NCBI RefSeq assembly: GCF_024281235.1
Contig: NZ_JAHWXY010000010.1
Span: 1 to 64,000 of the forward strand
Direction: 5' to 3'
DNA: 64,000 nt
Origin: Shinella daejeonensis
Lineage (GTDB): Bacteria > Pseudomonadota > Alphaproteobacteria > Rhizobiales > Rhizobiaceae
The position numbers were made by a program, and so were the translations under genes. The notes below the pieces were generated by a model. It saw only the letters and a list, made by a program, of their open reading frames with translations, ran no database searches and was not told the DNA's origin. The stretch's first letter is position 1; each line of letters begins with the position of its first letter. Shown here one piece after another: positions 6,916 through 57,041 of the stretch.

Positions 6916-7000
6916 GCGGGTGTGGTGGAACTGGTAGACGCGCCGGACTCAAAATCCGGTTCCGAAAGGAGTGTCGGTTCGATTCCGACCACCCGCACCA
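6916..7000 (+). tRNA. tRNA-Leu (anticodon CAA)
   Basis: An 85-base cloverleaf. The acceptor arms GCGGGTG (6916-6922) and CACCCGC (6990-6996) pair fully and CCA is encoded. The anticodon stem CCGGA/TCCGG holds the loop CTCAAAA with anticodon CAA at 6950-6952, which reads TTG. A long variable arm and the GGTTCGATTCC T-arm fit a class II leucine tRNA. A T-run follows directly. Confidence 0.95.
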
Positions 7001-8094: not shown

Positions 8095-8111
8095 CCACGG
8101 AAGGTCTTCCT

Positions 8112-8175
8112 CTCGCGGCCCTTTAGCGACTTGTTTAACGTGGCTGCAAGCCGGCCGGCAAATCACCACGAGCCC
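8112..8175 (-). promoter_or_regulatory. SAM-II riboswitch
   Basis: The minus strand carries the SAM-II signature blocks in order: CGTGGTGATTTG, then CTTGCAGCCACGTTAAA, then AAGTCGCTAAAGGG. The first arm (GTGG) pairs with CCAC and the 3' block supplies the pseudoknot strand. SAM-II aptamers are known upstream of metA and other methionine genes in alphaproteobacteria. It is ~70 bases upstream of metA with a terminator in between. Confidence 0.92.
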
Positions 8176-8262
8176 TTTAGATAGACCTAAGCAGCCCGCG
8201 AATCAATCCACTGCTTCATGCCCGGTGCGGACGTGGGACAGCACAGGAAGGATGCCGCGGCC

Positions 8263-10752: not shown

Positions 10753-10901
10753 GGCTGATGCCCTTAGCGCATGTTCCCCGGAAAGGGAAAGTTTTTGGCG
10801 GCCGGATGAAGGAGAACGGCAAGGCTCCGGCATGCGGGAAGCCGGCCACCGGAGGGAGCCTCTTGCGCACGGTCGCGCGGGGGACTATGCCTTGCGATGC
10901 T

Positions 10902-10994
10902 CTAACGGGGTGCCGCCGGGTTCCGGTCCTGCGGCTGAGAGGCGTTCCGCCAACCCGAAGAACCTGATCCGGCTCGTACCGGCGGAGGGATTAG
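10902..10994 (+). promoter_or_regulatory. TPP (thi-box) riboswitch
   Basis: The blocks CGGGGTGCC, GGCTGAGAGG, AACCCGAAGAACCTGATC and GGCGGAGGGAT occur in the order and spacing of the thiamine pyrophosphate aptamer. It is ~50 bases upstream of the thiB ATG. It should reduce thiBPQ expression when thiamine diphosphate is plentiful. No strong terminator hairpin is evident after it, so control of translation initiation is more likely. Confidence 0.93.
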
Positions 10995-11045
10995 ACGGCT
11001 CATTCCAGCGCCCTAATTCCCGTTCATGGACTGAAGGAGACGCTG

Positions 11046-52351: not shown

Positions 52352-56137
<3,786 letters not shown>

Positions 56138-56174: not shown

Positions 56175-56212
56175 CACATAAAGATATGTTTATGTCAATA
56201 TTTGTTTATGTG
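56175..56212. promoter_or_regulatory. AT-rich palindromic operator candidate upstream of metH
   Basis: CACATAAAGATATGTTTATG: the arms ACATAAA (56176-56182) and TTTATGT (56189-56195) are perfect complements around GATATG. A second TTTATGTG at 56205-56212 can pair with CACATAAA as well. The site is 38-75 bp upstream of the metH ATG. ArsR-type methionine/SAH-responsive regulators are known to bind AT-rich palindromes at methionine genes in proteobacteria; identity here is inferred. Confidence 0.6.
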
Positions 56213-56231: not shown

Positions 56232-56447
56232 TCAATGCAACGCCCCCTCAAGTCCCGCCAGCGAGGCGAAGAGATCGCGCAACCGGCGAATATCCGGATG
56301 GCGGGATTCATAGCGGGAGAGCTTGCGAACTTCCTTCAGCGCCTCGCCGGCGAGGTCCGCGCCCTGCGGTTGCCATAAAAGCCAGGCGATGAAGACGGAT
56401 TCCGGCTCGGTTCGGCCGGAGGCGAAGGTTTCGTTGATTGCCAACAC
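56232..56447 (-). CDS. uncharacterised 71-residue protein behind a cobalamin riboswitch
   Basis: I do not recognise this family. The 71 codons show the strong GC3 bias of real genes (GCC, ATC, TTC, CTC, GAG codons dominate), and the protein is charged and probably soluble, with EPESVFIAWLLWQPQGADL and ESRHPDIRRLRDLFASL as its most regular segments. It begins with GTG at 56447, preceded at 8 bases by GGGGA, which lies in the 3' arm of an inverted repeat. A cobalamin riboswitch is upstream on the same strand and metH is 94 bp downstream. It may be a B12-related accessory protein, but that is inference only. Confidence 0.6.
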   Translation of the reverse strand: MLAINETFASGRTEPESVFIAWLLWQPQGADLAGEALKEVRKLSRYESRHPDIRRLRDLFASLAGLEGALH

Positions 56448-56454
56448 GAATAAT

Positions 56455-56473
56455 CCCCAATTTCAAATTGGGG
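56455..56473 (-). promoter_or_regulatory. inverted repeat covering the ribosome binding site of the small gene
   Basis: CCCCAATTT and AAATTGGGG are perfect 9-base arms around a single C (as read on plus). On the minus-strand RNA the 3' arm contains the GGGG before the GTG start at 56447. As RNA it would form a 6-bp stem with a 7-base loop that hides the ribosome binding site. It could also be a protein operator. Confidence 0.6.
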
Positions 56474-56554
56474 GATGACCAGACGCACGCATGCCGGATA
56501 CCGCCTTGGACGGAAGCAAGCGCACCACAGGGACACCCCGCCCATGGACGTTAC

Positions 56555-56752
56555 AGGCGTCAGGGCAGGTCTCCTGGCTTGCGGATCCTCGCGACCGTCT
56601 CGCCTTCCCGGCGCTTGCGCGCCAGTGGCCCTTATCGACGATCGCTCACCGTTCACAGTTGCGGGGGCAGCGCCGGCTTTGTGTCCCGTGTTGGGACAAT
56701 CGCACCGGCTTCCCTCTTAGCCTCCGGACCCTGCGGCCCGGAAGACCCTGAC
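56555..56752 (-). promoter_or_regulatory. cobalamin (B12) riboswitch
   Basis: The minus strand carries the cobalamin aptamer in order: GGGAAGCCGGTGCGA, then GCTGCCCCCGCAACTGTGAA, then GGTGAG, CCACTGG, GGGAAGGCGAGA and finally GCCAGGAGACCTGCC, the B12 box. It is directed toward the small ORF and metH. Boundaries are approximate. No T-run terminator follows, so control of translation is likely. Confidence 0.92.
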
Positions 56753-57041
56753 CGGCGGACACTGCCGCGCCGCGGCTCTCGTGTCAATGGCTGCATCCAC
56801 AACCGCGACCGACCCGGCCGAGATATTGCAAGCCTCTGTCTTTACGGCTAAAAAATACCGTTTTCATATACCACGAGGCCATGGCCCTGTGCGGGCCGCT
56901 GGAACCAAGTCACGCCGTTCGCCGTTTCGCTATCGCGGCATGCTGGTTCGAGGCGGCGTGCCGGCGCAGCCTGCCCGCAAAACCGTCCGGCATCGGGGCC
57001 TTTGCCGACGAGTCGTCACCGCCAATCTATGAATCGGGAAC

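What the first reader, a model, noticed from the sequence alone, without database searches (positions are those of the whole stretch)
56232..56752. Cobalamin riboswitch controls an unknown small gene through a hairpin that hides its ribosome binding site
A clear B12 aptamer on the minus strand is followed ~90 bases on by a perfect 9+1+9 inverted repeat (56455-56473). The 3' arm contains the GGGG that lies 8 bases before the GTG start of a 71-codon ORF with good codon bias. This is the layout of a translational riboswitch switching an uncharacterised protein. Known gene families behind B12 riboswitches are mostly B12 synthesis, uptake or B12-independent isoenzymes, so this small protein would be a candidate new member of the B12 regulon. 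That it is coding and switched is inference.
Basis: partly seen in the sequence, partly recalled or inferred. Interest (0 to 1): 0.72.

Follow-up and report, generated by a model that had tools for sequence, protein, structure and literature searches.

The report
Vitamin B12-switched gene of unknown function
A vitamin B12-sensing RNA switch in a Shinella genome sits in front of a real but unnamed small protein gene whose relatives are found almost only behind such switches, which points to an unstudied part of how these bacteria cope when B12 is scarce.

Summary
A strong cobalamin riboswitch (RF00174, 130.8 bits) lies on the minus strand, followed by a hairpin containing the GGGG 7 bases before the GTG of a 71-codon ORF. 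The ORF is a real gene: it occurs with the aptamer in 17 of 21 Shinella genomes, is under purifying selection (pN/pS 0.28), and the stem holding the SD is kept in 21 of 21 Shinella-type leaders. It belongs to an unnamed family of three-helix proteins, about 60-95 aa, in 57 of 297 genomes of its family. Of 67 non-Shinella matches, 63 lie downstream of a B12 aptamer on the same strand, 0.2 expected. Neighbours vary: gbcAB-like, nrdAB or nothing in front; often metH behind. Two genomes keep riboswitch and gene with nrdA or nrdAB remnants between. Four Shinella lack aptamer and ORF together but keep metH with its own palindrome, so metH is not the target. Most likely a translational OFF switch for a trans-acting B12-shortage protein; switching, translation and the protein's task are inferred. 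The riboswitch is ordinary; the protein family is the new part.

The parts
56547..56765 (-). Cobalamin riboswitch aptamer (RF00174)
   Evidence: cmscan 130.8 bits, E 1.3e-32, model 1-189 of 189
56656..56671 (-). L5 stretch GCTGCCCCCGCAACTG, whose CCCCGC is complementary to GCGGGG downstream
   Evidence: sequence and position; that L5 pairs with L13 in B12 riboswitches is recalled, not tested here
56530..56543 (-). GGGCGGGGTGTCCC, conserved platform element (candidate L13)
   Evidence: exact in 26 of 32 leaders printed; four more have GGGCGGGG with a changed tail, two have no GGGCGGGG
56455..56473 (-). Candidate ribosome-binding-site hairpin, 8-bp stem; the 3' arm holds GGGG (56455-56458)
56232..56447 (-). 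Small gene, 71 codons, GTG start, unnamed B12-riboswitch-linked family
56176..56195 (.). Palindrome ACATAAA-N6-TTTATGT between the small gene and metH (SahR-like operator by position and recall)
   Evidence: exact match, 0.01 expected in the window; kept before metH in 4 Shinella genomes without the cassette; PMC8877191 reports a SahR motif upstream of metH in Ensifer aridi (passages), its letters were not seen
52352..56137 (-). metH, cobalamin-dependent methionine synthase, downstream neighbour
   Evidence: NCBIfam NF007024 2148.5 bits and TIGR02082 1730.8 bits
57042..64000 (+). Divergent large ORF running off the window (neighbour, not part of the unit); resembles the cyclic beta-glucan synthase NdvB from recall
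   Evidence: conserved as upstream neighbour; only a sub-threshold Pfam glycosyltransferase match to its first 1000 residues

Best explanation
The cassette is a cobalamin riboswitch that most likely works as a translational OFF switch for the 71-codon gene. With B12 bound, the stem at 56455-56473 closes over the GGGG that serves as Shine-Dalgarno sequence and the protein is not made; when B12 is scarce the stem opens and it is made. The protein belongs to an unnamed family of small three-helix proteins dedicated to the B12-shortage programme, and it most likely acts in trans, by protein contact, because no single neighbour is constant and it survives when its operon partners are lost or lie elsewhere. 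Shown by sequence: the aptamer, the conserved coding gene, the conserved hairpin in close relatives, the near-exclusive link to B12 riboswitches, and joint absence of aptamer and gene while metH stays. Inferred: B12 binding, the direction of switching, translation, and trans action. What it acts on is open. My best guess (about 30%) is that it helps the oxygen- and iron-dependent, B12-independent enzymes that share this regulon (class Ia ribonucleotide reductase, GbcAB-like Rieske oxygenases); a second guess (about 20%) is that it handles idle B12 enzymes such as MetH or NrdJ.
For: Aptamer 130.8 bits. In Shinella the gene is in 17 of 21 genomes, each with an aptamer upstream (17 of 17). Coding: pN/pS 0.28. 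Stem with SD in 21 of 21 Shinella-type leaders, and different stems with the SD in the 3' arm in 8 of 14 other short leaders. Across the family outside Shinella 63 of 67 matches have an aptamer upstream on the same strand at 100-5644 nt, 0.21 expected. Of 11 loci from named records 11 have one, 4 of them new to the count. Gene in front, 63 non-Shinella rows of the tree: gbcB 32, aptamer itself 21, nrdB 6, btuF-like 2, other 2. Four Shinella genomes lack both aptamer and gene but keep metH and its palindrome. G253 and G298 keep riboswitch and gene with nrdAB or nrdA remnants and have no B12-type NrdB elsewhere. In the window's genome the riboswitch-nrdAB and riboswitch-gbcAB loci lack the gene and only one copy exists.
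Against: No binding, expression or ribosome data. Static folding keeps the SD paired in both the free and the blocked-L5/L13 models, and forcing it open costs about 6.7 kcal/mol, so no antisequestor was demonstrated. The hairpin in the window alone is matched by 19 of 200 shuffles. In 6 of 14 other short leaders the scan gave no convincing SD hairpin, and among the 8 counted the shuffles reach the same score in 0 to 51 of 200. Four of 67 matches have no aptamer by that count: G302 (a partial aptamer lies at the other end of its contig), G278 (partial match), and the weak G679 and G511; a 24-position fragment on G237:C9, not counted among the 67, has none either. Of 21 Shinella genomes 4 lack the cassette. 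The three-helix model has no PDB match, so function is unsupported by fold.
Confidence: 0.8

Rival explanations
1. The small protein is a dedicated accessory subunit or assembly factor of a particular B12-independent enzyme (GbcAB-like Rieske oxygenase or NrdAB), and stand-alone copies serve the same enzyme encoded elsewhere.
For: 32 of 63 non-Shinella copies directly follow gbcB and 6 follow nrdB, in several with the start touching or overlapping the stop. In 80 genomes, B12-type GbcA is in 37 of 44 with the gene against 15 of 36 without, and B12-type NrdB in 18 of 44 against 1 of 36. The window genome has both enzymes elsewhere.
Against: Six of 44 gene-positive genomes have neither (G033, G110, G175, G246, G253, G298). 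15 of 36 gene-negative genomes have GbcA without it. The gbcAB and nrdAB loci of the window genome lack it in cis. The 80 genomes were my selection, not a random sample, and relatedness was not corrected for.
Confidence: 0.3
2. The riboswitch really controls metH, and the ORF is a leader or uORF that couples the switch to metH translation, as described for uORFs near B12 riboswitches in Mycobacterium tuberculosis.
For: metH follows on the same strand in the window and in 14 of 14 further Shinella loci examined and in 10 of 21 other aptamer-adjacent copies. uORF coupling is reported in PMC11260477 (abstract read).
Against: Most copies outside Shinella follow gbcAB or nrdAB, and of the 32 behind gbcB none has metH within 700 bases behind it. 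In four Shinella genomes aptamer and ORF are absent and metH stays with its own palindrome. The protein is under purifying selection over its last 58 codons. Repressing a B12-dependent enzyme by B12 would be contrary to the usual logic (recalled).
Confidence: 0.06
3. The hairpin at 56455-56473 is an intrinsic terminator, so the switch is transcriptional.
For: The scan calls it terminator-like in the window.
Against: One such site is also about the mean of the shuffles (1.1). The other Shinella leaders have GGGGAAGAAATG-type sequence after the stem, not a T run, and the stem ends 5-7 bases before the start codon.
Confidence: 0.08
4. The ORF is a decaying leftover of a former nrdAB operon and no longer matters.
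For: Remnants of nrdA (G253, G298) and nrdB (G253) between aptamer and gene point to loss of nrdAB there; four Shinella lack the cassette.
Against: The coding sequence is conserved in Shinella with pN/pS 0.28 and the stem is kept in 21 of 21 Shinella-type leaders.
Confidence: 0.05

Closest known systems
Cobalamin riboswitch, Rfam RF00174
   Same: Full-length aptamer far above the gathering score; SD-holding stem downstream as in translational B12 switches (recalled).
   Different: Nothing unusual seen in the aptamer; the controlled gene is new.
B12 regulon gene classes in PMC3766115 (B12 synthesis, B12 and cobalt transport, isozymes of B12-dependent enzymes; passages read)
   Same: Behind a cobalamin riboswitch and often in one operon with isozymes or transporters.
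   Different: By sequence the small protein matches none of these classes; it has no Pfam or NCBIfam family.
CbtB, small cobalt transporter subunit (PF09489), also behind a B12 riboswitch in this genome
   Same: A short protein of about 60 residues under a B12 riboswitch.
   Different: No Pfam match of any of 24 family members to CbtB; predicted as three helices.
Streptomyces nrdABS operon under a B12 riboswitch, with a third gene nrdS (recalled; search listing only)
   Same: A third gene behind riboswitch-nrdAB.
   Different: NrdS is, from recall, an AraC-type regulator and much larger; homology was not tested.
uORFs next to B12 riboswitches of Mycobacterium tuberculosis metE and ppe2 (PMC11260477, abstract read)
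   Same: A short translated frame next to a translational B12 OFF switch.
   Different: Here the frame is a conserved protein found in several operon positions, also behind the other genes of the operon.

Membership tests
Cobalamin riboswitch RF00174 | Covariance-model score above gathering threshold | tested here: met
   130.8 against 31.5 bits
Cobalamin riboswitch RF00174 | L5-L13 kissing interaction | tested here: inconclusive
   Complementary CCCCGC and GCGGGG are present, but the programs used do not model pseudoknots
Cobalamin riboswitch RF00174 | B12 binding and B12-dependent expression change | not testable with these tools
   needs in-line probing or a reporter
Translational (RBS-sequestering) riboswitch | Shine-Dalgarno within a conserved stem directly before the start codon | tested here: met
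   21 of 21 Shinella-type leaders, 8 of 14 other short leaders (starts of the others were chosen with a preference for an SD)
Translational (RBS-sequestering) riboswitch | Alternative antisequestor structure | tested here: inconclusive
   SD stays paired in the free fold; some arm-L13 pairing (0.40 expected pairs) appears only when the SD is forced open
B12 regulon (riboswitch-controlled gene set) | Gene directly or operonically downstream of a B12 riboswitch across species | tested here: met
   17 of 17 Shinella copies, 63 of 67 other matches, 11 of 11 loci from named records, 7 of which repeat loci of the 67
uORF/leader peptide | Tied to one downstream gene, little conservation of the peptide itself (definition recalled) | tested here: not met
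   varied neighbours and pN/pS 0.28
Any Pfam or NCBIfam protein family | Significant profile match | tested here: not met
   24 members scanned: best Pfam E 0.0084 (a phage portal family, 2 members match at E up to 1), best NCBIfam E 0.064; PADLOC 0 of 4 members; PHROGs best E 0.16 in 4 members
CbtB | PF09489 match | tested here: not met
   no match in 24 members, while the CbtB of this genome scores 69.7 bits

The most novel reading that the evidence does not exclude
The family is a dedicated B12-shortage effector: a small adaptor made only when the riboswitch reads low cobalamin, which acts post-translationally to move the cell from cobalamin-dependent enzymes to oxygen- and iron-dependent substitutes (for example by aiding the NrdB and Rieske iron enzymes, or by holding idle MetH or NrdJ). 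It would be the protein arm of what has been seen as a purely RNA-controlled regulon.
Probability: 0.25. Interest if true: 0.82.

Novelty: new member of a known kind. Interest (0 to 1): 0.62.

Why it matters
B12 riboswitch regulons are described as synthesis genes, transporters and isozymes of B12-dependent enzymes, with a rest of other or unknown roles (PMC3766115, passages). A protein family without a name, found almost only behind these switches, kept where nrdAB has been deleted, and present in 26 of 109 sampled genera of its family, means that part of the response to B12 shortage in these soil and root bacteria has no known molecular role. It can be tested with one reporter and one deletion.

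Tried and rejected

How the counts were made: the 67 are the matches outside Shinella; I left out one fragment (G237:C9:78029-78100, 24 profile positions, beside an nrdB; no aptamer listed on that contig), with it the count would be 63 of 68. The list was cut at its end; that could only hide aptamers, and each counted copy of those genomes had one listed. The script allowed up to 8 kb; the largest distance was 5644; the chance value 0.21 assumes a 5.2 Mb genome and a 6 kb reach. The tree left out G278 (partial), G679 and G511 (weak) and a G329 fragment, so its 63 non-Shinella rows are not the same 63 as those with an aptamer (G302 is in it). The co-occurrence test used 80 genomes chosen by me (44 of the 57 gene-positive genomes and 36 negatives; for negatives not printed by name, absence from the match lists was taken as no match), without correction for relatedness. 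metH downstream was checked in 14 of the 16 other Shinella loci.

Literature, open-access papers only. None of the listings or the passages read (PMC8877191, PMC5343134, PMC3766115, PMC7857596; abstract of PMC11260477) names this family. Supplementary tables were not open to me, and the 2003 B12 comparative-genomics papers were not read (one id tried, not held), so an entry such as 'hypothetical protein' in an old regulon table cannot be excluded.

Full report
What is in the window. On the minus strand, 56765 to 56547, is a complete cobalamin riboswitch aptamer (RF00174, 130.8 bits). After a conserved GGGCGGGGTGTCCC element comes CCCCAATTTGAAATTGGGG (56473-56455), an 8-bp stem whose 3' arm holds the GGGG that lies just before a GTG start; the ORF runs to 56232, 71 codons. 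Ninety-four bases further on begins metH (ATG at 56137). Between them lies the palindrome ACATAAA-N6-TTTATGT (56176-56195; exact, 0.01 expected in the window). On the other side a large ORF runs divergently from 57042. The genus is Shinella: one same-genus genome (G001) carries its match at exactly the coordinates and contig length of Shinella sp. PSBB067, NZ_CP069303.1.

Is the small ORF a gene? Yes. It is found in 17 of 21 genomes of the genus. Over 18 sequences (17 Shinella and G031) the mean pN is 0.129 and pS 0.459; 58% of differences fall on third codon positions; the two other same-strand frames are broken by stops in 16 of 18 and 9 of 18; the antisense frame is broken in only 3 of 18 but shows pN/pS 1.16. 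The GTG of the window lines up with ATG in the others.

Is the hairpin real? In the window alone it is unremarkable (19 of 200 dinucleotide shuffles do as well). Across species it is kept: in 21 of 21 Shinella-type leaders a stem of 7-8 pairs with GGGG in its 3' arm ends 5-7 bases before the start codon. In 8 of 14 other short leaders a different stem does the same, for example GTCCTTG...CGAGGAC in G165 and G293; in the other 6 no convincing one was found. Stems of unrelated sequence that each cover the SD speak for function. The letters after the stem in other Shinella (GGGGAAGAAATG and the like) argue against a terminator as the general mechanism. Minimum-energy folding leaves the SD closed in the free model too and needs about 6.7 kcal/mol to open it, so the switch itself is not demonstrated.

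The family. A profile of Shinella and near relatives, then of 24 diverse members, finds the protein in 57 of 297 genomes of the window's family (code f1; Rhizobiaceae in the GTDB sense, from recall) and 26 of 109 genera, in 6 of 297 genomes drawn from the order, 4 of them outside f1, and in 3 of 385 drawn from the class, of which one is the window's own and two are weak. Its length is about 60 to 95 residues with the starts chosen; the core reads PExVFxxWLxxxPxGADxAxAARxE...RLRxLF. AlphaFold2 with 65 sequences gives three helices (15-24, 32-44, 51-63), mean pLDDT 79.1, pTM 0.67, 34 of 71 residues at 90 or more. No Pfam or NCBIfam family matches significantly, and no solved structure was found that resembles it.

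The link to B12. Outside Shinella, 63 of 67 family matches have a cobalamin aptamer upstream on the same strand at 100 to 5644 bases, where 0.21 would be expected. For one more (G302) a partial aptamer (33.8 bits) lies at the far end of the same contig, which would be 2.6 kb upstream if the contig is circular. The remaining three are a partial match (G278) and two weak ones (G679, G511). In Shinella all 17 copies have one.

The neighbours differ. Of 63 non-Shinella rows in the tree, 32 follow gbcB in gbcA-gbcB-small, 6 follow nrdB in nrdA-nrdB-small, 21 stand directly behind the aptamer (10 of these before metH), 2 follow a btuF-like gene and 2 are other. The gbcA and gbcB tested (those of G234) resemble glycine betaine monooxygenase subunits but score below the NCBIfam cut-offs (520.6 against 670 and 386.7 against 500), so 'GbcAB-like' is the right name; the others were recognised by similarity to them. 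A Phyllobacterium plasmid record shows nrdA-nrdB-hypothetical protein-cobF-metH as annotated.

Where the window arrangement may come from. In G308 the order is riboswitch-nrdA-nrdB-small-metH. In G253, same genus code, riboswitch, small and metH remain, and between riboswitch and small lie what look like the start of nrdA and the last 12 codons of nrdB (IEYQDGGALAWD then stop; tblastn E 1.7e-5 and 1.5e-4 in a small set). In G298 an nrdA-like start (E 1.6e-5) is left, in one open frame with the small gene. Neither genome has a B12-type NrdB elsewhere. So nrdAB was most likely deleted in these two while riboswitch and small gene were kept. I infer, without remnants to prove it, that Shinella reached riboswitch-small-metH in the same way; its small protein falls among the nrdB, cobF and metH contexts in a poorly resolved tree. 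The window genome has riboswitch-nrdA and riboswitch-Rieske (gbcA-like) loci elsewhere, both without the small gene, and riboswitches before mesX with a MetE-core gene and before cbtB-cbtA (Pfam), before a btuB-btuF-btuC-btuD-like set and before two further transporter-like loci (named by eye only).

metH is not the target. Four Shinella genomes (G002, G003, G005, G020) lack both aptamer and small gene but keep metH with the palindrome ACATAAAGATATCTTTATGT before it. A SahR motif upstream of metH is reported for Ensifer aridi (PMC8877191, passages); that this palindrome is a SahR site is inference. The flanks differ between G002/G005 and G003/G020, so if this is loss, aptamer and gene went together, perhaps twice.

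Is there one partner? In 80 genomes chosen by me, B12-type GbcA (70% identity or more) is present in 37 of 44 with the gene and 15 of 36 without; B12-type NrdB in 18 of 44 and 1 of 36; MesX in 5 of 44 and 2 of 36. Six gene-positive genomes have neither GbcA nor NrdB. So the gene goes with the B12-independent isozymes statistically but needs neither, which is why I favour an action in trans on something common to B12 shortage. Class Ia RNR, Rieske oxygenases and MesX/MesD all need oxygen (MesD: PMC7857596, passages; the others recalled), which suggests a role around oxygen- and iron-dependent enzymes; this is a guess.

Verdict. The riboswitch is ordinary. The new part is a small protein family that lives almost only under B12 control and has no known task.

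Noticed in passing
L089 and 31 other family loci; L185 in the window genome: GbcAB-like Rieske oxygenase and reductase pairs stand behind B12 riboswitches in many genomes of the family. They may be B12-independent stand-ins for corrinoid-dependent N-demethylation (guess). One paper search for B12 riboswitch, glycine betaine and Rieske together found 0 papers.
   Followed up: partly
L145 6466-7091 minus (G253) and L148 963-1594 minus (G298): Remnants of nrdA (both) and nrdB (G253) lie between a B12 riboswitch and the small gene; in G298 the nrdA start is in frame with it.
   Followed up: yes
L157 (G165) and L159 (G236): The small gene has its own riboswitch and faces a convergent gbcAB pair that also has a riboswitch, as if it had moved or been inverted within the regulon.
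   Followed up: no
L182 (G000:C11:932500-945200): In the window genome a B12 riboswitch precedes mesX (PF08908, 586 bits) and a MetE-core gene, which look like the oxygen-dependent, B12-independent MesX/MesD methionine synthase pair.
   Followed up: partly
window 56176-56195: Palindromic operator-like site before metH, kept where the riboswitch cassette is absent; SahR-like.
   Followed up: partly
window 8103-8179 minus, 10896-11007 plus, 6916-6997 plus: An alphaproteobacterial SAM riboswitch (74.8 bits), a TPP riboswitch (67.2 bits) and a tRNA in the same window.
   Followed up: no
L172 (G679) and L173 (G511): Weak family matches in other families of the class without an aptamer in the 13 kb examined; they may be distant relatives outside B12 control or chance.
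   Followed up: partly
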